Shown here: piece by piece, positions 43,642 to 64,000 of the stretch
How the letters are laid out: each line of letters starts with the position of its first letter
Numbering within the stretch: the stretch's first letter is position 1
NCBI RefSeq assembly: GCF_003688405.1
Contig: NZ_REFC01000014.1
Location: 483,625-547,624 of the forward strand
Length of the DNA: 64,000 bases
Source of the DNA: Ulvibacter antarcticus
Lineage (GTDB): Bacteria; Bacteroidota; Bacteroidia; Flavobacteriales; Flavobacteriaceae
Direction: 5' to 3'
Program-made: the position numbers and the translations under genes
The notes under the pieces: model-generated
What the model saw: only the letters and a program-made list of their open reading frames with translations
Databases searched by the model: none
Told to the model about the DNA's origin: nothing

Positions 43642-43859
43642 TGACATATGGTTTAGCGTGTGATTGCTATCAGTAAGCTAAGTTTGTAACAGCGACTTTT
43701 ATTCAATTCTCATCGAACTAAAATTTCTCCGGAATCACGGGATGTTGGGTAAAGCTAACTTAAACGTATTAATCCGAGCACCAATTTAGTTAATAATTCT
43801 TTGGGAATATAATTCGAGTAGGTGAGAAACCATAATGACTAATATGAGGAGGTATTGCG
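43642..43859 (-). repeat. Cassette-boundary repeat, copy 1 (decayed)
   Basis: A degenerate copy filling the gap between the cysteine-cluster gene and the COG4705-like gene. Recognisable blocks include ATCCGAGCACCAATTTAGTTA (near 43771-43790) and CATAATGACT near the right end, as in the copy at 49834. Strand is given by gene direction. Confidence 0.6.
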
Positions 43860-43861
43860 TA

Positions 43862-44608
43862 TTATTCCACAATTTTCTTGTTCAATGTCCTATGAGAAAT
43901 TATGATCAATATCGTCATAAGTACGATTGAAATTATTGAAGAATTTAATGTTCCTAAATCCAAACCACCTTTTGCTATTGGTTTGGTTAAAAAATCTCCA
44001 AATGTTGCACCAAATGGTCTAGTAAAGATAAATGCTATCCAAAATAATATGATATGATTTATTTTAGTCAGATAATGTAATAATACAACAATCATTATAA
44101 TTCCAGCAGTTACCATTGCTCCATTTAAATAGCTGAATCCAACTACGTCACTCAAATAATCTCCGAATGCCGTTCCCAAACTATTTGAGAATAATATGGC
44201 AATCCAATAATAAATTTCTTTGTTTCTATTTAAGATTGGAAAGACACTCAACGACTTGAACTTTTTATACCAAAGTAATAGAGTCATAATCAGGCAGGAG
44301 AACAGTATTAGACTTCCCCAAGTATATCCTAAATTCAGACTTCTATCCATAAAATCGGAAATTTCGGTGCCAAGTGTAGTCGTTGCAATTATGACTAGCC
44401 AATAGAAAACTGGTATATATTTTTTGGCAACTAATTGTTTGAAAAGAACAATTAAAAAGAAAATCAGAGTTATAATTATTCCTGTTAAGTAACCAAGATT
44501 TAGTGTCATTGACAAATAATCTCCTAAGGTCTCGCCAAGGGTTGTTGCAACAATTTTCATTAACCAAAAGATTAATGTTATTTCGGCAACCTTATTCAGC
44601 TTATCCAT
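43862..44608 (-). CDS. COG4705-like membrane protein with four repeats
   Basis: A 248-residue inner-membrane protein with eight hydrophobic helices. It consists of four internal two-helix units, each with a related motif: TTLGETLGDYL, TTLGTEISDFM, NSLGTAFGDYL and RPFGATFGDFL. This layout fits the uncharacterised COG4705 membrane proteins. Gly/Asp-rich helix motifs in four-fold repetition suggest an internally symmetric channel or transporter, which is inference. The start is 2-3 bp beyond copy 1 of the repeat at the 3' side. Confidence 0.8.
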   Translation of the reverse strand: MDKLNKVAEITLIFWLMKIVATTLGETLGDYLSMTLNLGYLTGIIITLIFFLIVLFKQLVAKKYIPVFYWLVIIATTTLGTEISDFMDRSLNLGYTWGSLILFSCLIMTLLLWYKKFKSLSVFPILNRNKEIYYWIAILFSNSLGTAFGDYLSDVVGFSYLNGAMVTAGIIMIVVLLHYLTKINHIILFWIAFIFTRPFGATFGDFLTKPIAKGGLDLGTLNSSIISIVLMTILIIISHRTLNKKIVE

Positions 44609-44831
44609 AGTGCTTGCGATTAAGTTTAAATATCAACCATCTAAACTTCAAAAGTTTAAACAAATTGTGGCTAAAAGTGTTAAGTGTTGCTTCGATTAGT
44701 TTTAGTTCATTATTCACTACCGAATTCAGATTAACTAAAGTTACAAACAACTTAGAAAGGTAAGCGAATTCGACTTTAACAGTAACTAAGATAAGCTAAT
44801 TAATTAGACTGAAAATGTAATAGCTAAAAGC

Positions 44832-45704
44832 CTAGGAAATAGGCAATTTACTCTGCTGTAGCTTGTTTCTAACTATTTTATTCTCTTTTATAGATAATCT
44901 TAAAAATACAATACACAATAGAAGTAGCAAAAATATAGATAAAATAGAATCCTCTATCCCATATATGCTTCCTGTGATTAACTCCGGGCCATTAAACTCG
45001 GCACTAAATATAGTTCCCACATCTTGAATTCCAGATAAATTAGATCCATAAAAGGGTTGTGCAAAATTCCAACCCAAATGAAATGCAAATGGCAGCCAAA
45101 TTCTTTTTGTGTACGTATACATTATCCCGTGAGCAAAACCAAATAGAAGACCTAATAGTACTGATAATAGTGTCACATTATCATTAAAGATATGTGGTAA
45201 TTCAAACAAAATTGAAATAATAATAAGTACAATATAAGTACCAATCCAATTTTCTAAAATCCTATATAAAATAGCTCTAAACAGAATTTCTTCAATTAAA
45301 GCAGCAATAACTAAAAAAGAAAAAGGGGCTAGAAAGTAAGAAAATCCTGCGAATTCGATGATTTTATAATAGCCTAGTAGATATAAAATTAAAATCACAA
45401 AGGATAAAATAGAAAAGCCTAAAAGGAAACCACCAGTTAATACTTTTAATATATTTTTCTTAGATAGTTCAAAAATTTGCCTTTTCTCGTAGAATTTAAA
45501 GAGATAGTAATAGGTAGCCAATAATACTGCAACAGATGTGTAATTTATGAAAGTATCTGCTAATGGATTGGAATCAATTAATAAGTAAAATATGGGCTTG
45601 GATATGAAATTCTGAAAACCAATAAGTACCAATAAGCAAATTCCAATTCCTAATATAATTTTTGTCAGTGGAAACTCGATTACCCTTTTTAAAGTTTTAT
45701 TCAT
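44832..45704 (-). CDS. CPBP-family intramembrane metalloprotease
   Basis: A 290-residue multi-spanning protein of the CAAX-protease/bacteriocin-processing (Abi) family. Seen: the active-site motifs EEILFRAILYRILE (EExxxR, about 152), FGFAHGIMYTY (about 190) and FAFHLGWNFAQP (about 208). All four conserved residues are present, so it is probably active. Targets unknown; some relatives act in bacteriocin immunity. The flanking gap 44609-44831 shows only faint similarity to the repeat. Confidence 0.87.
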   Translation of the reverse strand: MNKTLKRVIEFPLTKIILGIGICLLVLIGFQNFISKPIFYLLIDSNPLADTFINYTSVAVLLATYYYLFKFYEKRQIFELSKKNILKVLTGGFLLGFSILSFVILILYLLGYYKIIEFAGFSYFLAPFSFLVIAALIEEILFRAILYRILENWIGTYIVLIIISILFELPHIFNDNVTLLSVLLGLLFGFAHGIMYTYTKRIWLPFAFHLGWNFAQPFYGSNLSGIQDVGTIFSAEFNGPELITGSIYGIEDSILSIFLLLLLCIVFLRLSIKENKIVRNKLQQSKLPIS

Positions 45705-45765
45705 AAATGGTGATTATATGTTTAATCCGTTTACTTTTCACCTTAATTAAATCAAGTTTGGCTTA

Positions 45766-45853
45766 ACGATTATTCCGATGAATTGTGTTTTGATTAAAAG
45801 TAGTAAATACAATTCACTTTTCTATTAAGCCTTGTTTGCATACACTTAGCTAT
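45766..45853 (-). repeat. Cassette-boundary repeat, copy 2 (right half only)
   Basis: GATTATTCCGATGAATTGTG and TTTTGATTAAAAGTAG, then ATTAAGCCTTGTTTGCATA, match the right half of the copies at 62195, 63073 and 63716. The left half is missing, indicating a deletion in the 145-bp gap between the CPBP and DUF1801 genes. Confidence 0.7.
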
Positions 45854-46320
45854 TTACTCGCTTTTCTTTTTGGCCTTATTTTCTTTTCAGAAATTGACAT
45901 TACAATGCTCTTGGGTTGAACATTATTATCGGTTAAATCAATATTTAGTTTTTCTGAAATTCCGACGGCCTCCCAAATCAAATTTTTAATTTTTTCCTTT
46001 GGAAATGTTTTTAGATCCCTTACAGAAATATGTCTTATTAGTTTTCCTTTTCCTTCTAGCTTAAGGTCCTTTCCTGTCAATTCTGCACCACGATTAAATC
46101 CGAAGTTTACATGTTTCGAATAAACAGCGATATGACAAAAGGCATCTTTGAGTTTTTCAGATTTCGAATAGGCCATGGCAACTGCGTTATAATTGTCCCA
46201 AATTAACTCATTGGCTTGTGGCACTAAATCAGTAATAAAATTCCTCAATTCTAATGACAAATTTTGAATTTCTTCGTCATAAGGTTCTAGGAATTTTTTA
46301 AGCTTTGAGTTGGGTTTCAT
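45850..46320 (-). CDS. DUF1801-like protein
   Basis: A 156-residue cytoplasmic protein of the DUF1801/YdhG-like superfamily. Seen: LVPQANELIWDNYNAVAMAY and SKHVNFGFNRGAEL, then LIRHISVRDLKTF and a basic C-terminal tail (KKIRPKRKASK). It follows the VOC gene by 31 bp with no repeat between, so these two genes may travel as one unit. Function unknown. Confidence 0.78.
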   Translation of the reverse strand: MKPNSKLKKFLEPYDEEIQNLSLELRNFITDLVPQANELIWDNYNAVAMAYSKSEKLKDAFCHIAVYSKHVNFGFNRGAELTGKDLKLEGKGKLIRHISVRDLKTFPKEKIKNLIWEAVGISEKLNIDLTDNNVQPKSIVMSISEKKIRPKRKASK

Positions 46321-46351
46321 CTTGGTTTTTTAGGAATTTCAATTATTAATT

Positions 46352-46708
46352 TTAAATACTTTGTCCAAATGTCAATAGGTTATTATCTGGGTCGAGTATG
46401 GAAAATTCCATTTGCTTCCAGGGTTTAACTTCCAATTTCCCATTTGGATGAATAGTTGTTTTATTATCTAATAATGTTTGGTAAAAATTATCTATGTTGT
46501 CAAGTCTAATATAAACTTGGCCATAATTATCTTTTGGTTCAATTTCTTTAAATTCAAAGAAGTGAATTTGAATTTTGTCTTTTTCTAGCATCAGATAACC
46601 ATCAAAGTCCTTTACTCCAAATTCTTTAAATCCCAACTTTTTGACGTAGAATTCTCTCGTAACATTTTTGTCACGCATTGGTAATTTCGGATTAATATCT
46701 GTTAACAT
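46352..46708 (-). CDS. VOC-family protein (bleomycin resistance-like)
   Basis: A 118-residue vicinal-oxygen-chelate protein. Seen: PKLPMRDKNVTREFYVKKLG at the start, YLMLEKDKIQIHFFEF, QVYIRLDNID and MEFSILDPDNNLLTFGQ, typical of BLMA-type binding proteins. It probably sequesters or modifies a small toxic compound; ligand unknown. Confidence 0.87.
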   Translation of the reverse strand: MLTDINPKLPMRDKNVTREFYVKKLGFKEFGVKDFDGYLMLEKDKIQIHFFEFKEIEPKDNYGQVYIRLDNIDNFYQTLLDNKTTIHPNGKLEVKPWKQMEFSILDPDNNLLTFGQSI

Positions 46709-46945
46709 AATTAAACTAATAGCTTTTGTAAATTAATACTTTTCTTGTGTTTAAAATCAGTTTAATTTGTCTGATTTTGTTCTCTCAATATTAATGAATG
46801 TACTTTCCATTTCTTTGAATTCACAAATTGTAAGCTTTCGGTCAATCTTGCTGAGATCTTTTTTTGTAAAGAACATATATTAATCGTCGTTCAGCTTTGA
46901 GGTTATCCTTTTTGTTAATTCATATTAATCAATTTCTCCAGCGAT

Positions 46946-47185
46946 TTAATATTTTCTTTTATATTTTAAGAGTGAGATTAGAGATACAATTGCCCATATT
47001 CCCTCTAGAATTATGAAAGGGAGATATTCCATTAGTATTGAAGCAAGACAAGCCATACTAGCTCCAATTAAATTCAGTACAATAAAAGTTAAATCATCTG
47101 TCTTTAATTTTCCTGCAATATTTAATAAGTAAGCAAGAAGTATTTGAAAAACCCCGACAAATCCAATCCAATCTATGGTATTCAT
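46946..47185 (-). CDS. CBU_0592-like two- to three-helix membrane protein
   Basis: A 79-residue membrane protein with about three hydrophobic segments (8-26, 33-50, 54-73). The layout and IDWIGFVGVFQILLAYLLNI plus LNLIGASMACLASIL match the small CBU_0592 family. Function unknown. The 47186-47319 gap has faint remains of the repeat (ATTAGCGTTATAC). Confidence 0.72.
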   Translation of the reverse strand: MNTIDWIGFVGVFQILLAYLLNIAGKLKTDDLTFIVLNLIGASMACLASILMEYLPFIILEGIWAIVSLISLLKYKRKY

Positions 47186-47319
47186 TATTTATTTTAAACT
47201 TAAAAAGTTAGTTTCATCGTCTTATTCCCAATTAAAAGTAATTGATAATTTATAAGAATTTCCTTATTTAAAGTCTAATTATACATTAGCGTTATACGAG
47301 TTTGTGCCTCATTGAATCT

Positions 47320-48162
47320 TCAATCTTGTTTATTGTTAGATTTTATATGAACATCCATTTGAGGAAAAGGAATTGTGATTTTATTTTTAATAAATTTCTT
47401 GTTTATTATTCTACGGATATCACTTTTCATTCTATCTGAACCAAAAATTGTACTGCTATAAAAAAGAACTTGGAAATCTAATGATGAATTTCCAAAATTC
47501 ACAAGTCTTGCTTCAATTAATTTTTCATCATTAACTTCAGGATGCTCTTTAGCACTTTCTTGAAGAATCTTTATAACGAGTTCAACATCACTTCCATAAG
47601 AAACTCCAATTTCAATTCTAAAGCGATTTTGTCTTTTCTGATGGCTCCAATTAATGACTTTATTCGTAGTAATTAAAGAGTTAGGGATTATTATAGAAAT
47701 ATCATCCGTATTTAGCCCTTTAGAAGTGCGTAAACCTATCTCCTGTATTTTCAAAATACCTCCATCTACTTCCAAAATATCACCTATTCTAATAGTCCTT
47801 TCTGAGAGCAAAATGACTCCAGAAATAATGTCGTTGAACGTTTGTTGCAAACCTAATCCAATACCAACGAGTAGCGCCGCAGAACCAGCTATTAAAAGTG
47901 ACACTTTAACCCCAAATGTTTCTAATATTATTCCAAGAGCAATAACCCAAACTATGTATTTAATTATTTGATATAACGAATAAGTATTTCCTTCATTAAA
48001 TTTATCTAATTTTCTTCTGCGGAAAATGGATTTTTTAACTATCCATAAAATAGCCTTTGTAATAACTACAATGAATAGGGCTAGAACTATAGTACTAACC
48101 ATCAAACTATATTTTCCAATACTAAATAACTCAAATTCTAAAAATTTGTTCAATAGTTCCAT
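47320..48162 (-). CDS. MscS-family mechanosensitive channel, compact form
   Basis: A 280-residue inner-membrane channel. Seen: about three transmembrane helices (18-40, 62-85, 90-112), the pore-helix region LLIAGSAALLVGIGLGLQQT, and the beta-domain hallmark GLRTSKGLNTDDISIIIPNS with the following NWSHQKR. Smaller than the 595+ residue paralogue at 1-1786. It lies inside the repeat-bounded region and would be a cassette payload. Confidence 0.9.
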   Translation of the reverse strand: MELLNKFLEFELFSIGKYSLMVSTIVLALFIVVITKAILWIVKKSIFRRRKLDKFNEGNTYSLYQIIKYIVWVIALGIILETFGVKVSLLIAGSAALLVGIGLGLQQTFNDIISGVILLSERTIRIGDILEVDGGILKIQEIGLRTSKGLNTDDISIIIPNSLITTNKVINWSHQKRQNRFRIEIGVSYGSDVELVIKILQESAKEHPEVNDEKLIEARLVNFGNSSLDFQVLFYSSTIFGSDRMKSDIRRIINKKFIKNKITIPFPQMDVHIKSNNKQD

Positions 48163-48193
48163 ATAATTTGTTTTTACAACAATGTTTTCAAAA

Positions 48194-48420
48194 ATGTACC
48201 TCGCACATTAATATGAGGATTAAGGCACTTGGCGGAGCGCGCATTTTTAATTAGCGACCGCTATCCAATTCTCATTCGGCAGTAATTATCCGAAGCTGCG
48301 TGAGACTCAGATGGGTAATGTTGTGCGGATTATTCCGAGAACCAGTTTAGTTAAATAATAACTCAAAATCTAAATTTATTATTGAACAAGGAATGAACAT
48401 TATGCAATATTAGCTTATGT
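48194..48420 (-). repeat. Cassette-boundary repeat, copy 3
   Basis: 227 bp between the MscS gene and the 147-aa gene. Contains GGCACTTGGCGGAGCGCGCA, TCCGAAGCTGCGTGAGACTC and TATTCCGAG. Its right end TTAGCTTATGTC overlaps the next stop codon and mirrors the left box of copy 4. Confidence 0.8.
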
Positions 48421-48864
48421 CTATTCAGATTTTAATAATTCAAATGATTTTTTTTTGAATCCGAATATGACCTTATCATATTTTTTATCCTTTATTAAGT
48501 GAATTTCATTTTTAGTAATATCAAAACTAATTCTTGTAATAAAACGATTTGAAACATTCGAAAATTCAGATTCAATCTCTTGCGTATCCGATTTGAGTTC
48601 AAAATCAGACGAGCCAATAAATTTTAAAGTAGCTCCTTTAAACGTTTTGATGTTCATTCGACTCAGAATAACGGTTTCTAAAAATAAATAACCGTTCAAT
48701 TCATCAATTCCACCGTAAATTATTCCATCTTGAGATTCAGCTATTTTATCACCTCCTATGTTTTCGATTTTTTCCTCTGTGACTGTGTCGACATGAAGCC
48801 TTTCCATTGCTCGAATATTTCCAAGAGCTGCTAATACTTTATCTACTTTTTTAAATAATGCCAT
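48421..48864 (-). CDS. Unrecognised 147-aa cytoplasmic protein
   Basis: Not recognised. No signal peptide or membrane segment. N-terminal half is mixed, then a beta-rich, Lys/Asp-rich C-terminal half (FKGATLKFIGSSDFEL, RISFDITKNEIHLI). It is bracketed by matched inverted ends: TTAGCTTATGTC after its stop and the complement of GATGTAAGCTAA before its start, which supports a self-contained cassette. Confidence 0.72.
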   Translation of the reverse strand: MALFKKVDKVLAALGNIRAMERLHVDTVTEEKIENIGGDKIAESQDGIIYGGIDELNGYLFLETVILSRMNIKTFKGATLKFIGSSDFELKSDTQEIESEFSNVSNRFITRISFDITKNEIHLIKDKKYDKVIFGFKKKSFELLKSE

Positions 48865-48874
48865 TTTTTTTTCT

Positions 48875-49100
48875 GATGTAAGCTAACGGGTTTGTAAAAC
48901 ACTTGTTGCGGCTGGCGCAGTGTGCGGCTTGTAGCAGCGACCACCTCAAAGTTATTCTTTTTTTAAATTATTTGGAGCCGCGTGGGACTCAGAAAGGCAA
49001 GCTTACTTTCTTATTACGAGTACCAATTTAATCAATTATTTGCAGCTACAACAATTCTAATTAAAGAGAAGCCATGATGACTTATATATAGTTGGGCATA
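48875..49100 (-). repeat. Cassette-boundary repeat, copy 4
   Basis: 226 bp. Left box GATGTAAGCTAACGGGTTTG; body contains GGCTGGCGCAGTGTGCGGCT and GCCGCGTGGGACTCAGAAAG; right box AGTTGGGCATAG. On the gene strand its leading box reads GCCCAAC, an exact RYYYAAC. Confidence 0.85.
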
Positions 49101-49147
49101 GTTATAATATTTTCGATGCATTCTCAACATGAATTCTTATTGTCAGC

Positions 49148-49816
49148 TTAGTTAGAATGGTTTATTTCTTCTTCACTAAGTTCACCAGAAAACTCATCCC
49201 TTTCAAAGTCTTCATTATTCAGCCAATAATCTGATGTGATAATTTGATATAAATTTTCATCAACCGATTTTAATTCCCATATAATACTTTCGGCATCGTC
49301 AAATTCTTTCTCTGAATCAAGTTGGTCATTAAATAATCTTTTCATTAAGCTTTTAGCTGAAAGTAGATCACTTATGGATCGCAGTACAATTTCTTTTGTA
49401 ATGTTAATCTTCTCTTCAAAAATGAGTTCAATGTCAATAACAGATGCGAGTGTTTTTGGAAATTTACCATTATAAGTCTGATAAAGTAACTGGTTAATAT
49501 TGAAAAGTGGGTAATGCAAAGAAATATCAGGATATTCTTCAGCTATCTTATCTATCAGCATTTCATGAGAAAGATTGGCTATTTGACTCTCCTTAAGTAC
49601 ATTCTTCAGTTTATAACTTAATACAATAGTAGCAGCTTCATTTGGTTCAAAGTCAGAAATGGCCATTGAGAGCATATCAAATAACTCTAATTCCGGTACT
49701 TTGTTAGCCTCCGTATAATCAAATAATTCAAGTAAATTAATATAATCTTCGTTCTTCCAATATCCTTCAATTACTTCAATTGATTTGATTTTTTTAAGTT
49801 TTATAGTGAAGTTCAT
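49148..49816 (-). CDS. Unrecognised acidic 222-aa protein
   Basis: Not recognised. A Glu/Asp-rich, mostly helical cytoplasmic protein; it ends in an acidic tail (GELSEEEINHSN). No signal peptide or membrane helix. It is the payload of the unit with the best integron-like ends: GTTGGGCATA on its 3' side and the complement TATACCCAAC on its 5' side. On the gene strand these read GTTGGGT (exact GTTRRRY) at the 5' end and GCCCAAC (exact RYYYAAC) at the 3' end. Confidence 0.7.
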   Translation of the reverse strand: MNFTIKLKKIKSIEVIEGYWKNEDYINLLELFDYTEANKVPELELFDMLSMAISDFEPNEAATIVLSYKLKNVLKESQIANLSHEMLIDKIAEEYPDISLHYPLFNINQLLYQTYNGKFPKTLASVIDIELIFEEKINITKEIVLRSISDLLSAKSLMKRLFNDQLDSEKEFDDAESIIWELKSVDENLYQIITSDYWLNNEDFERDEFSGELSEEEINHSN

Positions 49817-49833
49817 TTTTCGTTTTTATTATT

Positions 49834-50057
49834 ATACCCAACGGGTTTGTATAATGTTTGCTACGCTAATCGCAGCGTAAGGCTTGAAGAAACAACAGCC
49901 ACCAAGTCTCGTTTCGGCTCAATTATCTGAAGCTACATGAAACCCTGAAAGGCAAGCTTTCACGTTTTATTCCGAGCACCAATTTAGTAAATTAATTGAA
50001 GCTAACATAATTCTAATAGGATAGAAGCAATGATGACTTATACTTGGTTGTGGTGCG
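49834..50057 (-). repeat. Cassette-boundary repeat, copy 5
   Basis: 224 bp. Left box ATACCCAACGGGTTTG (gene strand GTTGGGT); body contains CGCAGCGTAAGGCTTGAAG and GTTTCGGCTCAATTATCTGA; right end GGTTGTGGTGCG. About 70 bp of other sequence separate it from the CorA stop. It fills most of the 310-bp gap here. Confidence 0.85.
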
Positions 50058-50126
50058 TTTTCTCCAATGCCATTCTAGATCAATCAGTATCGGGCTATTT
50101 TATTTTTACATCTGTCTAATAATTCA

Positions 50127-51191: not shown

Positions 51192-51222
51192 ATTATTTCT
51201 TTGGCATTGTGTGTTTAATCAA

Positions 51223-51448: not shown

Positions 51449-51458
51449 TATTTTAATT

Positions 51459-54230: not shown

Positions 54231-54441
54231 GTTTGCCAACGGGTTTGTATAATGCTTGTGACGCCTTGCGCAGCGTGCGGCTTGAAGCGGTGACAGTTTT
54301 CCTGTTCCGGGTATTCGGAGCTGCGGGAAACTCAGAAGGGCAAGCCTCCTCGATTTATCAGAAACCAAGATACTTAATTATTTGTAATGAACATTGCATT
54401 AAGTTCCTCAAAAGCCATGATTTTTACACAGAATTGGCAAC
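54231..54441 (-). repeat. Cassette-boundary repeat, copy 8
   Basis: 211 bp. Left box GTTTGCCAACGGGTTTG; body contains CGCAGCGTGCGGCTTGAAG and GAGCTGCGGGAAACTCAGAA; right box ATTGGCAAC. Ends pair with copy 7 (T9SS unit) and with the stub at 54921-54934 (GNAT unit). Confidence 0.85.
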
Positions 54442-54450: not shown

Positions 54451-54903
54451 TCAGAGGTGTAATTTCATTCCTTCGTGTGATGATTCAAATCCTAAATCTT
54501 CATAAAACTTAATTGCTTTTGGTCTTTTCTTGTCAGTAGTTAATTGTATCAAATGTGCATTCCGTTCTTTTGCTCTATTTATTGCCCATTCAAACATTGT
54601 TTTTCCAATTCCGATTCCTCTTTTGTCTTTTCTAATTCTTACTGCTTCTATCTGCGCTCTAACTCCGCCGCGATATGTAAGATATTGGATAAATGAGAGT
54701 TGTAAAGTTCCGATAATTTCAGAATTTTCATTCTCGACAACTATTAGTTCTTGATTTTTATCAGAATTAATTTCCTTAAAGGCTTTTACGTATTCAGATA
54801 GCAATGGGATTTGAAAGCTTTCTCTTTTAATGCCAAGCTCATCATCAGAAATCATTTCCACGATTTTTGAAAGATCATTTTTAGTCGCTTTTCTTAAATT
54901 CAT
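54451..54903 (-). CDS. GNAT-family N-acetyltransferase
   Basis: 150 residues from the ATG at 54903; the upstream in-frame ATG at 54936 would translate the cassette edge (ending KSEIE) and is not chosen. Seen: acetyl-CoA loop RKDKRGIGIGKTMFEWAI (about 95) and KKRPKAIKFYEDLGFESSHE (about 130). The stop lies 10 bp after the copy-8 right box, and a GTTTGCAACAG stub sits upstream. A decayed relative of this gene is at 59422-59616. Confidence 0.87.
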   Translation of the reverse strand: MNLRKATKNDLSKIVEMISDDELGIKRESFQIPLLSEYVKAFKEINSDKNQELIVVENENSEIIGTLQLSFIQYLTYRGGVRAQIEAVRIRKDKRGIGIGKTMFEWAINRAKERNAHLIQLTTDKKRPKAIKFYEDLGFESSHEGMKLHL

Positions 54904-54920
54904 TTCTATTTCAGATTTTT

Positions 54921-54934
54921 GGTCTGTTGCAAAC
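54921..54934 (-). repeat. Cassette-edge stub upstream of the GNAT gene
   Basis: On the minus strand GTTTGCAACAGACC, corresponding to the right box of copy 8 (TTGGCAACTGGC) as an inverted match. The rest of a repeat that should follow is missing. Confidence 0.5.
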
Positions 54935-55565
54935 ACTCCCAGTTAACATCGAAACCTTATTAGTTTCTTAAAAGTAATAATTTAAAAGGTATAGCGAAAT
55001 GTCGCGATTAATATTTACAGTTTTTTTGTGGCAGCACCTATTTTTGACTGTAGGTAAGAATTTGAAGTCCGCCAGTAAACCTTTCATTTTCTATCAAATG
55101 CCTAACCAATTATACTTTGGAGCTTCCAAAATTGAACTTTCTTCATAAGTTATTATCGGGCACAACATCACTTTTAATTGGTTGATTAATTCAAAATTCA
55201 AAATACAAAATACAAAAGACAAGCTGCAAACTGTTTACAACCACATGGATTGATGGCTGTATTAGGTGCCTCAGTTATTTCTTTTATTCCAGGGATTGAT
55301 ATTTTTCAATCTTAACATTAGCGGCAAACCGATTAGTTTTATGAGTTACTGAAAGAATATAATTATTTTGTTATTCCAACCATATTGGGGATGAGCTTAT
55401 TTATGTCTTTATGCACTCTAGTAATAAATCCATGAAGAGAATTAGCTACATAATATATTAACTTTTGCATCACGTCTTATTATTAAAATCAATGAAGTAT
55501 TTTTAAAATTCTTTAGCTTCAAATATAGAATATTTTGATTATTGAGTTTTAATCCTACAATAAAG

Positions 55566-55601: not shown

Positions 55602-55628
55602 AATTCTAACTTAAGAAACTATTTTTAA

Positions 55629-56177: not shown

Positions 56178-56242
56178 GATAAATTATTTAAATTATTATT
56201 GATTTCTAATTTTAGATTTATTGATATTTCTAGTTGTGTATA

Positions 56243-57408: not shown

Positions 57409-59061
57409 TTATAGTGCAAACAGGAAGTTGAAGAGGTCGACTTCCGGAAATAAATCCAATTTTTTACGTAGCCTATACCGCGCTGTTTTAGCACTTTCGG
57501 GTGAAATCCCAAGAATAGCAGCCGTTTCCTTGATAGATAGATTGAGGCGTGTAAGTATGGCCACCTTTAGGTCATTTCCACTTAGTGATGGAAATTTTGT
57601 TTTTAACTTCTGGGTAAAATTGGTATGTACTTGATCAAAATGAAACTTGAAATCCTCCCAGTCTTTTTCAGTACTTCTGTGTAGTTTTATGATCTTTTCC
57701 AGCTCTGAAAGTTGATAAGCGGGTATTGAGCTACTTCCTGAAGCATTCAATGTTTTAATTTTTTCTTCAAGAGATTCCAGCAATTCGTTCTTTTGAACAA
57801 AATTGAGTGCGTAACTGGTAAGTTCTTTATTCTTAAAATCAAGTTCTTGTTGCAACTCAGCTTGTTTAAGCTTCTGATTTTCAATTGCTGTTTGTGAATT
57901 TTTTTCTTGTGTAGATAATAAAGTTTTTTGATTTTTATTTCGAATACGGAGGCTTTTAATTAGAAAAAATGACAGTAAACCGATGATCCATATACCCGCA
58001 ATGAGTATCCATTGTGTAATACGACTACTACGGTTTTTATCGCTTAGATGGTCTAATTCGAGGTTTTTTTCCTTAATTTCATTTTTGAACTCTAATGCCG
58101 CAATTTGTTTGGATTTATCTAAACTATAAACCGAATCTCTTAAAAAAATATAGGAATCACTATATAGCAACGCTGAATCCAGTCGACCTTGCCGAACTTT
58201 TAGTTCTTTCAATTCTTGATATGCTGCTAATTTGTAATTATTTTGATGTTTTTCTCTTGCTCTTCGCAATGCAGATTTCAAATGCATTTCGGATAACCCT
58301 AAATCACCCTGCAAACGCTGTAACTTACCCATTTGGATCAAATTATTAATAAGCCCATCCTCATCATCTACCATTCGACCGTTTATAATAGACTGACGAA
58401 TGTGATAGTCGGCCTGTCCCAGATCTCCCTGTAGAAGGTATAACTCACCTAATCTTGAATGTGCTTCAGAAACGCCATAGGTGAAATCATGCACAGTATG
58501 TATCTTCAATGCATTGGTGAAATAATTCATGGCATCGGCATATTGTTGCCGCTGCATATACACCATGCCCAGTTTTGTGAATGTTGTAGCGACCCGTACT
58601 TGTAAATTGAGCGTTTCAAAATCTGTAATAGCCTTTCGATATAATTCTATTGCACTATCAAGATCTCCAATATCTGCATAGACCATTCCAATGTTTAAAG
58701 TACAATTTGCAATACCTTCAGTATCATGCAAATTAGCATAGAGTTCTTTTGCTTCTGTAAGTTTTTCCAATGCGAGTTTGGGCTGGCCTAGAGCCCAATG
58801 TGCCACTCCTTCAACTCTTCTGGCTCTTGCCATTCCGGGAAGATAGCTCATTTCACTTGACAATGAAAATGCCATTTTTCCGTTTTCAACCGACTGTCGC
58901 GGGTTACGAATCCATAATGAATACCCCAGTTCATTAAGTAAGTCTATATGTTCTTTGGAATTAGGGATGGATATTGCTATTTCACGCTCTAAGCTGTCAA
59001 TTATTTGGCCTGTTGTGAAAGTGGTAGTTATAAAAGCAATAAATAGAAATAAATAGCGCAC
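57409..59061 (-). CDS. TPR-containing membrane regulator with LuxR-type helix-turn-helix
   Basis: A 550-residue regulator. Seen: N-terminal signal peptide ending TTGQ, tetratricopeptide repeats (about 60-310; MARARRVEGVAHWALGQPKL, ANCTLNIGMVYADIGDLDSA), a transmembrane helix (about 345-367), a coiled coil (about 375-430) and a C-terminal helix-turn-helix (about 495-535; LSIKETAAILGISPESAKTA). This periplasmic-sensor/cytoplasmic-output form is common in Bacteroidota. An 18-bp palindrome lies 41 bp upstream of its start. Ligand unknown. Confidence 0.85.
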   Translation of the reverse strand: MRYLFLFIAFITTTFTTGQIIDSLEREIAISIPNSKEHIDLLNELGYSLWIRNPRQSVENGKMAFSLSSEMSYLPGMARARRVEGVAHWALGQPKLALEKLTEAKELYANLHDTEGIANCTLNIGMVYADIGDLDSAIELYRKAITDFETLNLQVRVATTFTKLGMVYMQRQQYADAMNYFTNALKIHTVHDFTYGVSEAHSRLGELYLLQGDLGQADYHIRQSIINGRMVDDEDGLINNLIQMGKLQRLQGDLGLSEMHLKSALRRAREKHQNNYKLAAYQELKELKVRQGRLDSALLYSDSYIFLRDSVYSLDKSKQIAALEFKNEIKEKNLELDHLSDKNRSSRITQWILIAGIWIIGLLSFFLIKSLRIRNKNQKTLLSTQEKNSQTAIENQKLKQAELQQELDFKNKELTSYALNFVQKNELLESLEEKIKTLNASGSSSIPAYQLSELEKIIKLHRSTEKDWEDFKFHFDQVHTNFTQKLKTKFPSLSGNDLKVAILTRLNLSIKETAAILGISPESAKTARYRLRKKLDLFPEVDLFNFLFAL

Positions 59062-59421
59062 AATATATACATCTACTACAAATATACTTCATAATTTGTT
59101 AATTTTGAATATTCAAAATGAACAGAACGATTCATCGACAGGCTCAGGACAAACATATTTGCATAAAGAAGCGCTAGAGATTTCGAACTATTCTACGAAA
59201 TGACATTCATCTCATTTTTCGGAAACTCGATCGGCGTTATTTGCAGTAAAAACTAACTGTTATTAAATTAATAGATATATAACCCTAACGATCTCCAAAG
59301 AATTTGGTGCGTTTCTCCTCCAGAAATGAGAAGATCGATGTTGGGTATAGATGGAAAAAGGCGATAGACTCTGTAGTTATTTGTCATTTTCAGTTCTCAC
59401 TTCATTTGTTTGCGTTTTAAT
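59062..59421. other. 360-bp gap with no supported gene
   Basis: Holds the palindrome at 59102-59119 and, at 59135-59154, TCGACAGGCTCAGGACAAAC, which resembles a short REP-like sequence seen widely in bacterial intergenic DNA. Nothing else was recognised. Confidence 0.5.
59102..59119. promoter_or_regulatory. 18-bp perfect palindrome upstream of the TPR regulator
   Basis: ATTTTGAATATTCAAAAT is fully self-complementary, 41 bp before the start at 59061. It could be an operator; it is AT-rich, so chance is possible. Confidence 0.35.
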
Positions 59422-59616
59422 TTTGTCACGATATGTCAGATATTAGATAAGTGAGAATTGTAATGTATTAATAATTGAGAAATTTATTTCCTCAAAGGCC
59501 TGTATGTATTCAGATAGCAAGGAGTTTTAAAAGCTAACTTTTTATTCCAAGCTCATCATCAGCAATCATTTCTACGATTTTTGAAACATCGTTTTCAGTC
59601 GCTTTTGTGAAGTTTA
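59422..59616 (-). pseudogene. Decayed GNAT gene fragment
   Basis: A broken relative of the N-terminal half of the GNAT gene at 54451-54903. Conceptual pieces: TKATENDVSKIVEMIADDEL (compare RKATKNDLSKIVEMISDDEL), then LLSEYIQAFEEIN after a stop and frameshift, then NTLQFSLI, stop, YLTYRD. The start codon is lost and parts are deleted. It lies between a repeat-free block and copy 9 of the repeat, so it is probably a dead cassette. Confidence 0.85.
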
Positions 59617-59638
59617 TTTATAGATCGAATTTTAGCTT

Positions 59639-59856
59639 GTCACCAACGGGTTTGTATAATAATCGTGGCGCTTGGCGCAGCGTGCGGCTTGAAGCAGCGA
59701 CACCTCTAAATCTCGTTTCGACACAATTGTCTGAAGCTGCGTGAGACTCAGAAAGGCAAGCGTTACGTATAGTTCCGATGACTAAAATAGTGAATTTTAA
59801 GTACTAAATAAACTGAAATTATGGAAAAGCTATGATTATTATGCGATGTTGGCAAT
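59639..59856 (-). repeat. Cassette-boundary repeat, copy 9
   Basis: 218 bp. Left box GTCACCAACGGGTTTG; body contains GTGGCGCTTGGCGCAGCGTG and GAAGCTGCGTGAGACTCAGA; internal hairpin variant TTCGACACAATTGTCTGAA; right box GTTGGCAAT, which sits 3 bp before the next gene's stop codon. Confidence 0.88.
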
Positions 59857-59858
59857 AG

Positions 59859-62183
59859 TTATTGTTTTATCATTTTAAAAATTTTTATTGAGCTATTAGT
59901 CTGAACTTTTAAAAAATATACATTAGATGATAATTGTCTAGTATTGATTACAGTAACACTATCAGCTATCTCATAAATGATACGTCCATTCATATCGAAC
60001 AAATAAACCGAGAGAATATCTTCCTCAAGATCTAAGTAGATATTATCAGTAAATGGATTCGGATATATATTAAAATTATTCTGTGAACAATCAATAGTTA
60101 CTTGTTGACTTTGTGTACTGGAATTTCCATAACTATCAACAAAAGTCCAAGTAATGTTTGAGGATGATGTGATTGGCAAACTAATTGTTGTATTACCAAC
60201 AATGGATCCATCACAATTGTCATTGGCTATAGGTTGAGTAAGTTGTTCTATACTGCATTGCTCAGTAAGAATTGGGAGTTCGTTTAAATTTGGAATAGGT
60301 GAAATAGTATCTTCAATAATTACTTGTTGAATTTGCGTACTAAAATTTCCATTACTATCAGCAAAAGTCCAAGTAATGTTTGTGGATGCTGTAATTGGTA
60401 AACTAATTGTTGTATTACCAACAATGGCTCCTTCACAATTATCATTAGCCGTAGGTTGAGTAAGTTGTTCTATACTGCATTGCCCAGTAAGAATTGGGAG
60501 TTCGCTTAAATCTGGAATAGGTAAAATAGTATCTTCAATAATTACTTGTTGACTTTGTGTGCTAAAATTTCCATTACTATCAACAAAAGTCCAAGTAATG
60601 TTTGTGGATGTTGTAATTGGTAAGCCAATTGTTGTATTACCAACAATGTCTCCATCACAGTTATCATTAGCTGTAGGTTGAGTAAGTTGTTCTATACTGC
60701 ATTGCCCAGTAAGAATTGGTAGTTCGCTTAAATCTGGAATAGGTGAAATAGCATCTTCAATAATTACTTGTTGACTTTGTGTGCTAAAATTTCCATTACT
60801 ATCAGTAAAAGTCCAAGTAATGTTTGTGGATGCTGTAATTGGTAAGCTAATTGTTGTATTACCAGCAATGGCTCCATCACAGTTATCATTAGCTGTAGGT
60901 TGAGTAAGTTGTTCTATACTGCATTCCTCAGTAAGAATTGGTAGTTCGCTTAAATCTGGAATAGGTGAAATAGCATCTTCAATAATTACTTGTTGGCTTT
61001 GTGTACTAAAATTTCCATTACTATCGGTAAAGGTCCAAGTAATGTTTGTGGATGCTGTAATTGGTAAGCTAATTGTTGTATTACCAACAATGGCTCCATC
61101 ACAGTTATCATTAGCTGTAGGTTGAGTAAGTTGTTCTATACTGCATTCCACAGTAAGAATTGGTAGTTCGCTTAAATCTGGAATAGGTGAAATAGCATCT
61201 TCAATAATTACTTGTTGACTTTGTGTACTAAAATTTCCATTACTATCGGTAAAGGTCCAAGTAATGTTTGTGGATGCTGTAATTGGTAAGCTAATTGTTG
61301 TATTACCAACAATGGCTCCATCACAGTTATCATTAGCTGTAGGTTGAGTAAGTTGTTCTATGCTACATAGACCAGTAAGAATTGGAAGTTCATTTAGATC
61401 TGGAATAGGCGGAGTTATATCTTCTGTTGGATTAGGACAATCACAGTTTTTATCGATTAAAACTGCATTGCAAGTACTAGCTTCAATTTCATTGGTAGAG
61501 GCTAAACCCCAAATTTCAAAAGTCAATGAAACTGGAATTTCAGAAATGGTTCCCTCCTCAATATTTAGTTCATATAAATTTAAAGGAGTAGCAACTATTA
61601 TTTTATTATCTGTTTCACAAAACTGACAATCATTTACAATTCCATAAATCACACTTGGGAAAGAATCTGGACAATAGAAATCATAAATAGTATCCTCTAT
61701 AATGTTATAGGCCAGAATTTCAGCCTGTGCATCAATGGGAGGGAAAATTAAATTTCCTTTAAAGAACGACAAGTCTCCACCTGTACCATAACCTAAATGT
61801 GATATAAGTGTTAATGTATCAGTTGCTACATTGTACTTATATAGATTCAAGTCAGTATTATTAATGGAAAATAATTCATTTTGGTTGTTTCCTGCTAAGG
61901 AAGTATATAATCCGACTGGAAAAGATGTAATTAAAATTGTATTACCAGTGTCAATATCAATTTCATAAAGACTGCCAGATGCTTCTATACCATATAATGT
62001 ATTATCTGAAAATGCGATATCAGTTGGGATTGTATTTATTCCGTTAATGGTACAGTGAAACTGTAAGGAGTTATCAGAATTTAGACTATAAATACTTTTC
62101 CAATAATCTATTAAATAAACATTCTGAGCTATGCAATTGGTAGAGAATAGTAATAGTAAATATAAACACTTCATTTTTGTCAT
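59859..62183 (-). CDS. Large T9SS-secreted protein with six HYR-like repeats
   Basis: A 774-residue surface or secreted protein. Seen: signal peptide ending IAQ (start at 62183 or 62174), a beta-propeller-like N-terminal part (about 20-245), six near-identical 74-residue HYR-like immunoglobulin repeats from Cys273 to about 700 (each CSIEQLTQP...ANDNC), and a T9SS sorting domain (about 702-774; FNIYPNPFTDNIYLDL, VYLFDMNGRIIYEI). The repeats would form a stalk. The gene is bracketed by GTTGGCAATAGTTAT and its near-complement at 62195. Confidence 0.87.
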   Translation of the reverse strand: MTKMKCLYLLLLFSTNCIAQNVYLIDYWKSIYSLNSDNSLQFHCTINGINTIPTDIAFSDNTLYGIEASGSLYEIDIDTGNTILITSFPVGLYTSLAGNNQNELFSINNTDLNLYKYNVATDTLTLISHLGYGTGGDLSFFKGNLIFPPIDAQAEILAYNIIEDTIYDFYCPDSFPSVIYGIVNDCQFCETDNKIIVATPLNLYELNIEEGTISEIPVSLTFEIWGLASTNEIEASTCNAVLIDKNCDCPNPTEDITPPIPDLNELPILTGLCSIEQLTQPTANDNCDGAIVGNTTISLPITASTNITWTFTDSNGNFSTQSQQVIIEDAISPIPDLSELPILTVECSIEQLTQPTANDNCDGAIVGNTTISLPITASTNITWTFTDSNGNFSTQSQQVIIEDAISPIPDLSELPILTEECSIEQLTQPTANDNCDGAIAGNTTISLPITASTNITWTFTDSNGNFSTQSQQVIIEDAISPIPDLSELPILTGQCSIEQLTQPTANDNCDGDIVGNTTIGLPITTSTNITWTFVDSNGNFSTQSQQVIIEDTILPIPDLSELPILTGQCSIEQLTQPTANDNCEGAIVGNTTISLPITASTNITWTFADSNGNFSTQIQQVIIEDTISPIPNLNELPILTEQCSIEQLTQPIANDNCDGSIVGNTTISLPITSSSNITWTFVDSYGNSSTQSQQVTIDCSQNNFNIYPNPFTDNIYLDLEEDILSVYLFDMNGRIIYEIADSVTVINTRQLSSNVYFLKVQTNSSIKIFKMIKQ
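60086..61367 (-). repeat. Tandem 222-bp coding repeats in the HYR gene
   Basis: Six in-frame repeats (five full, the last shorter), nearly identical in DNA, for example TTGGTAAGCTAATTGTTGTA recurs. Copy number may vary by slippage or recombination. Confidence 0.9.
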
Positions 62184-62194
62184 TCTTTATAATT

Positions 62195-62414
62195 ATTGCA
62201 ATTGGTTTGAACATAAATCGTGGGGCTTGGCGCAGCGTGCGGCTTGAAGCAGCCCAGCCATCAATAGCTCGTTTCGGCTCAATTCTCCGAAGCTGCATGA
62301 GACTCAGAAGGGCAAGCGAGTTCGGATTATTCCGACGAATCATATTTTGATTAAAAGTAGGAATTTCAATTCAATTTCCCACTAAGCCATGATTGCATAT
62401 TCGTTGTTGGCAAC
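62195..62414 (-). repeat. Cassette-boundary repeat, copy 10
   Basis: 220 bp. Left box ATTGCAATTGGTTTG; body contains GGCTTGGCGCAGCGTGCGGC and GTTTCGGCTCAATTCTCCGA; right half TTGATTAAAAGTAGGAATTT; right box GTTGGCAAC, 2 bp from the LysE stop. It is very close to copies 11 and 12. Confidence 0.9.
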
Positions 62415-62416
62415 AG

Positions 62417-63049
62417 TTAATTTTTTGTAAGCGCAAGTTTTATTCCGAGTGCAATAAAAATTCCGCCAGTTATTTTGTCCAGCCATATCTTTATTTTATA
62501 GTTTCTTCTAATTCGGTCAGATAGTTTTGAAGCAAATAAAGCTAAAATCAAACACCAAATTGTTCCGGTTAGTAAAAATGTAAATCCGAGAATTAGAAAT
62601 GGAAGTGAGTTTTGCACATAATTTGGATCAATAAATTGTGGTAAAAATGCAAGAAAGAATAATGCTACTTTAGGATTCAAAATATTAGTCAGAATTCCAG
62701 AAAAGTAAATCTTTTTGTAATCCGAAATTTCATTTTCTTTATTCAATTCAAATTTTTCATCTCTTTTTTTGGAGATTGCTCTAAGTCCTAAAAATATCAG
62801 ATATGCAGCTCCTAGATATTTAACAACTTCAAAAGCCAAGGCGGATTTAGCGAGTATAATTGATAATCCTAATGTTGCAAAGATGATATGAAAAATTGCG
62901 CCTGTTGATATTCCTAATGCAGACAAAACTCCAGCTTTTTTTCCTTGGGCAATACTTCTCCCAAGGATATACATTGTATCAGCTCCAGGAGTCAAATTCA
63001 GAATTAATCCCGCTATTAAAAAGGTTTCAAAGTTTATTATTCCAAACAT
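62417..63049 (-). CDS. LysE-family amino acid exporter (cassette payload)
   Basis: A 210-residue inner-membrane protein with about six hydrophobic segments. Seen: LNLTPGADTMYILGRSIAQG, ALGISTGAIFHIIFATLG and LTNILNPKVALFFLAFLPQF, the LysE/RhtB hallmarks. The stop is 2 bp from the right box of copy 10, and the start is 24 bp before the left box of copy 11; these boxes read GTTGGCAACAGTTAA and GTTGGCAACAATTAA on matched strands. Confidence 0.9.
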   Translation of the reverse strand: MFGIINFETFLIAGLILNLTPGADTMYILGRSIAQGKKAGVLSALGISTGAIFHIIFATLGLSIILAKSALAFEVVKYLGAAYLIFLGLRAISKKRDEKFELNKENEISDYKKIYFSGILTNILNPKVALFFLAFLPQFIDPNYVQNSLPFLILGFTFLLTGTIWCLILALFASKLSDRIRRNYKIKIWLDKITGGIFIALGIKLALTKN

Positions 63050-63072
63050 AATTTTCTTGGTTTGTCTTAATT

Positions 63073-63293
63073 GTTGCCAACGGGTTTGAATATGAATTGT
63101 GGCGCTTGGCGCAGCGTGCGGCTTGAAGCAGCTCAGCCATCAATCGCTCGTTTCGGCTCAATGCTCCGAAGCTGCGTGAGACTCAGAAGGGCAAGCGTGT
63201 TCGGATTGTTCCGACGAATCATATTTTGATTAAAACTAGGAAATATTATTCAATTTCCCACTAAGCCATGATTGCATATTCGTTGTTGGCAAC
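63073..63293 (-). repeat. Cassette-boundary repeat, copy 11
   Basis: 221 bp. Left box GTTGCCAACGGGTTTG; body contains GCGCTTGGCGCAGCGTGCGG and GAAGCTGCGTGAGACTCAGA; right half ATTCAATTTCCCACTAAGCC; right box GTTGGCAAC. Confidence 0.92.
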
Positions 63294-63307
63294 AGTTTTT
63301 TACTTTT

Positions 63308-63673
63308 TTACCAAATGTTTATAGTTTCTTTAAATTCAGATTCTCCGGTTACACTTATCTTAAGTTTTGATGGAACAACACTTTTTCCTTTATATTCAGG
63401 TTCTGCTGAATAACCCAATTTTTTTCCTTCAATTAATAATTCCTCTATCATTTTGTCAAATCGTTGCTTAAAAATTTGTGCAAATTCAGGAACATAAAGA
63501 ATATTTCTTTCACTATCCTCTCCACCAAATTCTAATGCCATTAGATGAACTTTTACCAATTCTCCTTTTTCGCATAAATCAATTGCTTTACTTTTAGTAG
63601 TAATTCTGCTGAAATCAGGTTCTTTTTCGTTTTCAGATATCAGATTCTCCTTTTTCTTAAACCAATTAAACAT
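63308..63673 (-). CDS. Unrecognised 121-aa cytoplasmic protein
   Basis: Not recognised. A charged protein starting MFNWFKKKENL (a short amphipathic N-terminus), a helix around residues 28-45, then FGGEDSERNILYVPEFAQIF and a C-terminal beta part (SKLKISVTGESEF). No signal peptide or membrane helix. Bracketed by copies 11 and 12 with ends GTTGGCAACAGTTT and GTTGGCAACAATTT. Confidence 0.72.
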   Translation of the reverse strand: MFNWFKKKENLISENEKEPDFSRITTKSKAIDLCEKGELVKVHLMALEFGGEDSERNILYVPEFAQIFKQRFDKMIEELLIEGKKLGYSAEPEYKGKSVVPSKLKISVTGESEFKETINIW

Positions 63674-63715
63674 ATTTTTTCTTCTTTTTCAATTAAGTTC
63701 GGTTTTTCACAAATT

Positions 63716-63936
63716 GTTGCCAACGGGTTTGTATAATAATCGTGGCGCTTGGCGCAGCGTGCGGCTTGAAGCAGCTTTGCCGACAATCGCTCGTTTCGGC
63801 TCAATTCTCCGAAGCTGCGTGAGACTCAGAAGGGCAAGCGAGTTCGGACTATTCCGACGATTCATATTTTGACTAAAAGTAATGATTTCAATACAATTTC
63901 CCACTAAGCCATGATTGCATATTCGTGGTTGTGCTT
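63716..63936 (-). repeat. Cassette-boundary repeat, copy 12
   Basis: 221 bp. Left box GTTGCCAACGGGTTTG; body contains GCGCTTGGCGCAGCGTGCGG and GTTTCGGCTCAATTCTCCGA; right end GTTGTGC, different from copies 10 and 11, so the next gene's unit has its own ends. Confidence 0.9.
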
Positions 63937-63948
63937 TCGTTATTTATT

Positions 63949-64000
63949 TTAAGTATTTGTATTATCGTTTTCTAATATTTTAATAAGTTCAACAGATCTT
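63949..64000 (-). CDS. C-terminal end of a gene entering from the right (probable)
   Basis: An open frame on the minus strand encodes RSVELIKILENDNTNT then TAA (63949-63951), 12 bp from the right end of copy 12. The position of the stop just outside the repeat matches all other units. Too short for identification. Confidence 0.35.
   Translation of the reverse strand, partial: RSVELIKILENDNTNT

What the first reader, a model, noticed from the sequence alone, without database searches (positions are those of the whole stretch)
43642..64000. Integron-like gene-cassette array built on ~220-bp attC-like repeats
Seen directly: 12 copies (10 near full length, one decayed, one half) of one repeat family, all in the same orientation, each placed at a gene boundary, with every gene on the minus strand. 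From copy 3 on, most units are one gene plus one repeat, the repeat beginning 2-70 bp from a stop codon. Known: mobile gene cassettes of integrons have exactly this layout (gene then attC, same strand, little spacer). Inference: this is a cluster of attC-like sites lacking an integrase in the window, with unusually long sites and large payloads. I cannot say whether it has been described.
Basis: partly seen in the sequence, partly recalled or inferred. Interest (0 to 1): 0.95.

Follow-up and report, generated by a model that had tools for sequence, protein, structure and literature searches.

The report
Integron-like gene stockpile, unusual integrase
This bacterium's draft genome holds over ninety gene-plus-repeat units, lined up behind a DNA-recombining enzyme that likely captures and shuffles them; related bacteria carry the same layout, which appears to be an unreported sister lineage of the integrons known for collecting antibiotic-resistance genes.

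Summary
The contigs I scanned hold 97 good copies of the repeat (92 outside a sparse second cluster). The integrase is found: a 393-aa tyrosine recombinase on contig C9. The first cassette begins 33 bp after its stop codon, at ATAACAA|GTT, and reads in the same direction. Decisive test: the ~10 bp opening a cassette are the reverse complement of the ~10 bp before the repeat closing the SAME cassette (63 of 89 neighbouring pairs match over 9 or more bases; shuffles stay at chance). That is the signature of circular cassettes joined at G|TT. The layout recurs in relatives: cassette calls in 31 of 37 named loci with at least 2 kb downstream, and in 12 of 12 distant homologues. The integrase lacks the IntI-specific insertion (65-66 versus 107 residues) and its clade is sister to IntI in my tree. 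It fails the published definition of an integron integrase but works like one. Unexpectedly, payloads shared between genera keep their cassette ends but carry dissimilar repeats. Recombination itself is inferred, not shown.

The parts
43655..43841 (-). decayed attC-like repeat
   Evidence: profile hit 25.8 bits
45769..45849 (-). half attC-like repeat
   Evidence: profile hit 17.1 bits
48204..48411 (-). attC-like repeat, damaged core (trail ends AAT)
   Evidence: 93 bits
48421..48864 (-). cassette gene, 147 aa, no Pfam match
48887..49093 (-). attC-like repeat
   Evidence: 161 bits
49148..49816 (-). cassette gene, 222 aa, no Pfam match
49842..50049 (-). attC-like repeat
   Evidence: 165 bits
50127..51191 (-). 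cassette gene, CorA-like Mg2+ transporter, 354 aa
   Evidence: PF01544
51234..51442 (-). attC-like repeat, damaged junction (GATG)
   Evidence: 155 bits
51459..52901 (-). cassette gene, pyridoxal-dependent decarboxylase, 480 aa
   Evidence: PF00282
52945..53153 (-). attC-like repeat
   Evidence: 195 bits
53175..54215 (-). cassette gene, secreted protein with Por sorting tail, 346 aa
   Evidence: PF18962
54224..54454 (-). attC-like repeat (junction at 54240; left end not placed)
   Evidence: 173 bits
54455..59632 (-). several genes without a detected repeat between them (acetyltransferase-like ORF, others, TPR protein at 57409-59061)
59647..59850 (-). attC-like repeat
   Evidence: 195 bits
59859..62183 (-). 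cassette gene, HYR-like repeats and Por sorting tail, 774 aa
   Evidence: PF23237, PF18962
62202..62408 (-). attC-like repeat, damaged junction
   Evidence: 217 bits
62417..63049 (-). cassette gene, LysE-type translocator, 210 aa
   Evidence: PF01810; lead and trail match over 10 bases
63081..63287 (-). attC-like repeat
   Evidence: 234 bits
63308..63673 (-). cassette gene, 121 aa, only a sub-cut-off Pfam match
   Evidence: lead and trail match over 10 bases
63724..63930 (-). attC-like repeat nearest the contig end
   Evidence: 224 bits

Best explanation
This is an integron-like chromosomal array: a tyrosine recombinase gene, an attI-like site 33 bp behind its stop codon, and over ninety gene-plus-repeat units that the recombinase likely inserts, excises and reorders as circles joined at a G|TT point. 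Shown by sequence: (1) the repeat, its orientation and its copy number; (2) each cassette's first ~10 bp complement the ~10 bp before the repeat that closes the same cassette, not the repeat that they touch, as expected if the cassette once closed on itself so that the two core boxes pair; (3) an inner stem in the repeat supported by compensatory changes; (4) a recombinase gene with all six catalytic residues at the head of such units on contig C9, and the same arrangement with a conserved TATAACN(A/C)|GTT site in relatives; (5) duplicated cassettes in new neighbourhoods whose identity runs from the junction to the closing core. Inferred: that this recombinase cuts there, that the repeat acts as a folded single strand, that a promoter in attI (TATATTTG-like) drives the first cassettes, and that C9, C8, C10, C11, C13 and the window form one array.
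For: Lead/trail complementarity within the same cassette: 63 of 89 pairs match over 9 or more bases, mean 8.2, against 3.9 for the same physical repeat and 3.8 for shuffles, largest of 1000 shuffles 4.3. Integrase, attI-like junction, first cassette and first repeat in a row on C9. Conserved attI-like site in 33 of 33 aligned loci, chosen because a first cassette was called within 60 bp of the stop. Cassette calls downstream of the integrase in relatives: 163 in 297 kb, against 30 in 805 kb upstream, 44 on the reverse strand and 16 in shuffled sequence, each of 1102 kb; distant homologues 105 in 143 kb against 8 reverse and 3 shuffled. Inner-stem covariation. Swapped cassette order between C8 and C10. 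Catalytic residues kept in 98 of 98 relatives.
Against: No excision, circle or strain-level gain or loss was seen. The IntI-specific domain, reported as necessary for activity in IntI (as cited in PMC9668308, passages), is absent. Strict attC cores fit few copies (5 and 4 of 96). Payload and repeat do not travel together between genera. Two of the five covariation measures do not exceed shuffles. A self-comparison found no repeated stretches in 20 kb behind L086, L100, L103 and L104, 4 of 14 long loci, and 6 of 37 named loci gave no cassette call. The array is spread over several contigs of a draft.
Confidence: 0.87

Rival explanations
1. The array is run by the housekeeping recombinases XerC and XerD acting on folded repeats (as elements that borrow Xer do; recalled), and the 393-aa protein beside it is incidental.
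For: XerD and a XerC-like protein are encoded in the genome; best solved-structure matches of the 393-aa protein are Xer-type proteins.
Against: The 393-aa family sits directly before cassette arrays in many genera, with a conserved junction 25-42 bp behind its stop in 33 aligned loci, and homologues of other subfamilies do too.
Confidence: 0.05
2. The system is a relic in this genome: cassettes were once mobile, but the array is now fixed.
For: In the window the lead/trail match runs 10, 10, 0, 10, 3, 1, 6, 0 from the contig end towards the distal end, and the cluster on C2 is mostly decayed.
Against: On the other array contigs most pairs match over 9-10 bases, and payloads 97-99% identical occur in different places. 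The integrase frame is open with its catalytic residues.
Confidence: 0.06
3. The repeats are a dispersed repeat family spread and shuffled by homologous recombination or a transposase, and the gene-boundary placement is a by-product.
For: Repeats in one array are alike, repeats of one type occur in several genera behind different genes, and repeats following duplicated payloads differ in some pairs.
Against: Cassette-specific complementary ends are not expected from it, nor a recombinase with a fixed junction at the head of the array in many genera.
Confidence: 0.02

Closest known systems
Chromosomal (sedentary) integrons with IntI (PMC9024848, PMC8618304, PMC9668308: passages read; Vibrio superintegrons recalled)
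   Same: Tyrosine recombinase, attI beside it, long one-way array of gene-plus-attC cassettes with AAC/GTT cores, R''/R' pairing in the circular cassette, distal decay.
   Different: No IntI-specific insertion, separate sister clade, an extra N-terminal domain, longer repeats here (~205 bp), strict cores rarely met, repeats not faithfully tied to payloads between genera.
Treponema integrons (PMC3607928, passages read)
   Same: There too intI is transcribed towards attI, in the direction of the cassettes.
   Different: Those were found as intI-type integrons; attC sites of 63-132 bp were reported there.
CALIN (attC clusters without integrase; PMC9024848, passages read)
   Same: The window alone would look like one.
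   Different: The genome has an integrase at the head of the same kind of array.
Archaeal XerA and bacterial XerC/XerD recombinases
   Same: Nearest solved structures by sequence and fold, then IntI4 2a3v; same catalytic residues; no IntI insertion.
   Different: XerC/XerD form another clade, and the 393-aa family is tied to arrays.

Membership tests
Integron (published definition) | Integrase with the IntI-specific additional domain | tested here: not met
   GKG-to-HxLRH span 65-66 residues in 98 of 98 rows, 107 in 30 of 30 IntI; TIGR02249 198.7 bits, cut-off 265; definition from PMC9668308, passages
Integron (published definition) | Integrase in the IntI clade | tested here: not met
   separate group, 100/99; sister to IntI, 96/92, in a limited sample
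Integron (published definition) | Integrase gene next to the cassette array | tested here: met
   C9; 31 of 37 named loci; 12 of 12 distant homologues
Integron (published definition) | attI site beside the integrase where cassettes join | tested here: met
   TATAACN(A/C)|GTT in 33 of 33 aligned loci, by sequence only
Integron (published definition) | Cassettes with R''/R' cores complementary within the cassette | tested here: met
   63 of 89 pairs match over 9 or more bases; shuffles at chance
Integron (published definition) | Cassettes are excised and inserted by the integrase | not testable with these tools
   needs an experiment
attC site | AAC and GTT triplets in the two cores | tested here: met
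   AAC 95 of 96, GTT 93 of 96
attC site | Strict RYYYAAC / GTTRRRY cores | tested here: not met
   4 and 5 of 96; consensus recalled
attC site | Imperfect hairpin with inner stem and unpaired spacer | tested here: met
   covariation 0.247 against 0.085, 91.5% of cells paired; folds z -3.9 and -3.1; single-strand use not tested
Mobile gene cassette | Gene and attC move as one unit | tested here: inconclusive
   similar repeats after some duplicates in the genome, dissimilar ones between genera
CALIN | No integrase with the array | tested here: not met
   integrase on C9 with the same repeat behind it; contiguity with the window inferred
XerC/XerD recombinases | Falls in the XerC/XerD clade | tested here: not met
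   Xer rows form their own group

The most novel reading that the evidence does not exclude
A second integron superfamily, sister to all IntI integrons, fills the Flavobacteriaceae. It split off before IntI acquired its specific domain, so that domain is not needed for cassette recombination as such. In it payload and attC are separate modules that are re-joined at the core boxes, which would give a concrete route by which genes acquire attC sites.
Probability: 0.45. Interest if true: 0.96.

Novelty: new variant of a known kind. Interest (0 to 1): 0.9.

Why it matters
Integrons are known from the phylum (PMC8618304, passages) but seem rare in Bacteroidetes proper: the IntegronFinder 2.0 survey names one complete integron there, in Salinibacter ruber M1 (PMC9024848, passages), and a Tenacibaculum genome was reported to have none with that program (PMC10013915, passages). 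Here homologues of this integrase at E 1e-45 or better occur in about 188 of 299 Flavobacteriaceae genomes (hand count), and cassette calls stood behind most of those that I opened with enough sequence. If the mechanism holds, a large cassette pool has been overlooked, because search programs ask for the IntI-specific domain (PMC9668308, passages). The sister position bears on where integrons came from and on what that domain is for. The mismatch of payload and repeat between genera makes the open question of how cassettes get their attC testable.

Tried and rejected
Plasmid collection, distant blastn with the repeat: no match. Rfam: three matches, all below the curated scores, all snoRNA families, taken as chance. 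I expected payload and attC to move together; searches do not bear that out between genera. The 450-aa recombinase on C7 was set aside: 27.6-28 bits with the phage-integrase family, and no repeat in the first 20 kb of C7, where it lies. One 270-bp cassette was sought in 299 genomes and found only in this one (at most two candidates scored per genome). Ten literature searches in a library of open-licence papers: no listed title or abstract start reports integrons or attC arrays in Flavobacteriaceae; full texts were not read, and papers outside the library were not seen.

Rows dropped or unevenly chosen: the profile search covered only the contigs that I fetched (window, C8-C18, C2 705-745 kb, C7 first 20 kb), and the whole-genome search scored 40 of 129 candidates. 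One search used sites of 90 bits or more on the array strand, which leaves out the two weakest window copies and one reverse fragment on C8; two of its 89 pairs are mis-ordered by my sorting and count as misses. Of 100 fetched integrases, 2 under 370 aa were left out, and some of its 98 rows are the same gene fetched from two collections. Trees used 28 and 14 of 35 sampled relatives, 22 and 16 of 30 IntI, 30 and 19 of 30 Xer. The pair count used 45 of the 85 copies listed. The cassette caller asks for exact 9-base ends and an exact 6-base stem, so it misses many and also gives some chance calls (rates in the text).
Full report
What was checked. The window is G000:C4:483625-547624 and ends exactly at the end of contig C4. 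A whole-genome search with one copy gave 41 matches, with 40 of 129 candidates scored. A profile built from 85 aligned copies gave 111 hits at E 0.01 or better in the contigs that I had fetched; C1, C3, C5, C6 and the rest of C2, C4 and C7 were not scanned with it. At 90 bits or more on the array strand there are 97 sites: 37 on C8, 29 on C10, 11 on C11, 10 in the window, 4 on C13, 1 on C9 and 5 in a sparser, partly decayed cluster on C2 (my tally). C8, C10, C11 and C13 are made of such units almost throughout, with one gap of about 8 kb and one reverse fragment on C8. That these contigs and the window form one array of roughly 100 kb is inference.

The junction test. If units move as circles cut at G|TT, the bases after the junction (lead) must pair with the bases before the AAC (trail) of the same unit, because in the circle they form the outer stem of the repeat. 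In the array the lead touches the previous unit's repeat instead. Over 89 neighbouring pairs the contiguous match from GTT averaged 8.2 bases, and 63 matched over 9 or more. The same physical repeat gave 3.9 (95 sites) and shuffled partners 3.8; the largest of 1000 shuffles was 4.3. In the window the matches are 10, 10, 0, 10, 3, 1, 6, 0 from the contig end towards the distal end, as expected if distal units are older.

The repeat. Besides the outer core there is an inner stem: GTATAATAATC/GATTATTATAC in one type, GAATATG/CATATTC or GTATAACGCTT/AAGCGTTATAC in others. On 45 of the 85 listed copies 91.5% of cells pair, against 81.2% in shuffles and at most 43% when slid; the covariation score is 0.247 against 0.085, reached by 0 of 500 shuffles. 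The two measures that count pairs and pair types do not exceed shuffles (reached by 128 and 470 of 500). A comparison of the two arms without that alignment gave 11.0 for the same copy and 7.8 for mixed copies, largest of 200 shuffles 8.7. Single-strand DNA folds of one window copy score z -3.9 and -3.1 for the two strands. Strict cores (recalled consensus) fit few copies: 5 of 96 GTTRRRY, 4 of 96 RYYYAAC; GTTR fits 93 of 96 and YAAC 92 of 96.

The integrase. The genome has four matches to the phage-integrase family: XerD over its model's cut-off, a XerC-like protein under it, a weak 450-aa protein, and a 393-aa protein at C9:28474-29655. Behind the last, 33 bp after the stop codon, comes ATAACAA|GTTCTACGCA, then a gene with a NACHT domain, its trail TGCGTAGAAC, a repeat at C9:31502-31741 and the next unit up to the contig end. 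Array and integrase read in the same direction, as reported for Treponema integrons (PMC3607928, passages). The protein scores 209 bits with NF040815 (cut-off 220) and 198.7 with the integron integrase model TIGR02249 (cut-off 265), the latter in two stretches. The span from the GKG motif to HxLRH is 65-66 residues in 98 of 98 relatives, 107 in 30 of 30 IntI of the phylum and 69-73 in 30 Xer: the IntI-specific insertion is missing. The catalytic R, K, H, R, H and Y are kept in all of these rows. The predicted model (mean pLDDT 82.9, pTM 0.57) has a well-predicted N-terminal alpha/beta domain of about 75 residues and a loose linker before the recombinase part; its best matches in the Protein Data Bank are XerA-type proteins, then IntI4 2a3v. 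In a tree of 81 rows the flavobacterial proteins, IntI and Xer each form one group at 100/99. With more distant homologues and two archaeal Xer added, the flavobacterial group holds together (98/92) and joins IntI apart from the Xer rows (96/92). Many other recombinase families were not sampled, so the sister position is provisional.

Relatives. In the family 78 of 299 genomes have a match at E 2e-95 or better, and about 188 at 1e-45 or better (hand counts). In the class 5 of 247 pass 1e-85, three of them in this family. The model TIGR02249 is over its cut-off in 84 of 296 genomes of the phylum; none of the 85 genomes with a match belongs to this family. Of 80 named loci (Ulvibacter, Maribacter, Gillisia, Mesonia, Winogradskyella, Lutibacter, Polaribacter, Tenacibaculum and others) 37 have at least 2 kb behind the integrase, and 31 of these gave at least one cassette call. 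Calls number 163 in 297 kb downstream, 30 in 805 kb upstream, 44 on the reverse strand and 16 in shuffled sequence, each of 1102 kb. In 32 loci the first lead lies 25-42 bp behind the stop; with this genome that makes 33 aligned sites, all with TATAAC 8 to 3 bases before GTT. A TA..TTTG box (the Bacteroidetes -7 element, recalled) lies within 40 bp in 11 of 33, shuffled mean 1.0; a looser form in 20 of 33, shuffled mean 2.5.

More distant homologues. Of ten loci with 38-43% identity, 9 gave at least one cassette call; four of the nine gave only one, and with some 0.04 chance calls per kb (upstream rate) single calls are weak. Of twelve loci with 33-39% identity all gave calls, 105 in 143 kb against 8 on the reverse strand and 3 shuffled; a palindrome stands before the junction in most, by eye. 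Against this, a self-comparison found no repeated stretches in 20 kb behind L086, L100, L103 and L104, out of 14 loci of 13.9 kb or more, although L104 has one unit by its ends. The same-genus genome G063 has a contig of the same length as a Ulvibacter litoralis record, so the window's genome is likely Ulvibacter.

Movement inside the genome. Near-identical payloads recur in new neighbourhoods, with identity running from the first base after the junction to the AAC; two payloads occur in swapped order on C8 and C10. In ten such pairs that I chose, the repeat behind the payload is 0.63-0.99 identical, against a background of 0.73 (sd 0.11); the left neighbour's repeat is 0.67-0.94 in nine (the tenth lies at a contig start). 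So whether repeats travel with payloads is not settled by this.

Movement between genera. The payload at C11:3119-3811 is the first cassette at attI of Mesonia mobilis (87%, full length) and a cassette in G255 (83%). In G157 (87%) it has cassette ends but, by eye, no attI or repeat on its left. In eleven further genomes only the gene region matches; by eye one of these (L254) has decayed lead-like bases, so some may be old cassettes. Between the four carriers payloads are 82-87% alike and the non-coding 34-bp leads 65-97%, but the repeats only 46-57%, against 36-49% for shuffled sequence; Mesonia and G255 are the most alike, with similar repeat length, and may be distant relatives (repeat ends set by me). 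In Tenacibaculum pelagium the first payload is shared (82%) with G101 from the junction to the AAC, whereas its repeat is 79-84% identical to repeats of Algibacter, Spongiivirga, Maribacter and Bizionia, where the match does not extend into the gene before it. So payload and repeat look separable between genera. Fast turnover or conversion of repeats is an alternative that I cannot exclude, and the clean cases are two.

Cargo. Of 89 cassettes 75 have an ORF of 60 aa or more, 72 of them on the array strand; 14 have none. Seventy cassette proteins matched 59 Pfam families, nearly all listed ones once each, and 33 defence-type models, among them IetS, a type IV restriction enzyme and TIR effectors.

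Verdict. By sequence it works like an integron. It is not an integron by the current definition, because the test for the IntI-specific domain fails. I file it as an integron-like sister lineage: a new variant of a known kind.

Noticed in passing
L034:12050-12322 and about a dozen similar units on C8 and C10 (L031-L034): A family of small cassettes, mostly of about 270 bp, without an ORF of 60 aa, sharing CTCGGAA...TTCCGAAC and GGTTCGTGTCTCGC blocks; possibly a non-coding RNA or regulatory cassette. One of them was found in no other of 299 family genomes.
   Followed up: partly
window 54451-54936 and 59481-59633: An acetyltransferase-like ORF and a shorter, diverged copy of two of its stretches (81-83% identical) bracket the 54.9-59.5 kb stretch that has no repeats.
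   Followed up: no
G000:C2 about 710-741 kb (L038, L039, L054): A second, sparser cluster: five good sites and many decayed or split ones, away from the main array contigs.
   Followed up: partly
L286-L297, first ~90 bp behind the integrase stop: In the distant subfamily the attI-like junction follows a perfect or near-perfect palindrome in most of the 12 loci (by eye), unlike the TATAACN(A/C)|GTT site of the window's subfamily.
   Followed up: no
L251 (G157): The C11 payload with cassette ends stands beside a left flank that does not look like attI or a repeat, perhaps an insertion at a secondary site.
   Followed up: no
window 60091-61500: Six tandem units of 222 bp inside one cassette gene, in a protein with HYR-like domains; unrelated to the attC-like repeats.
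   Followed up: no
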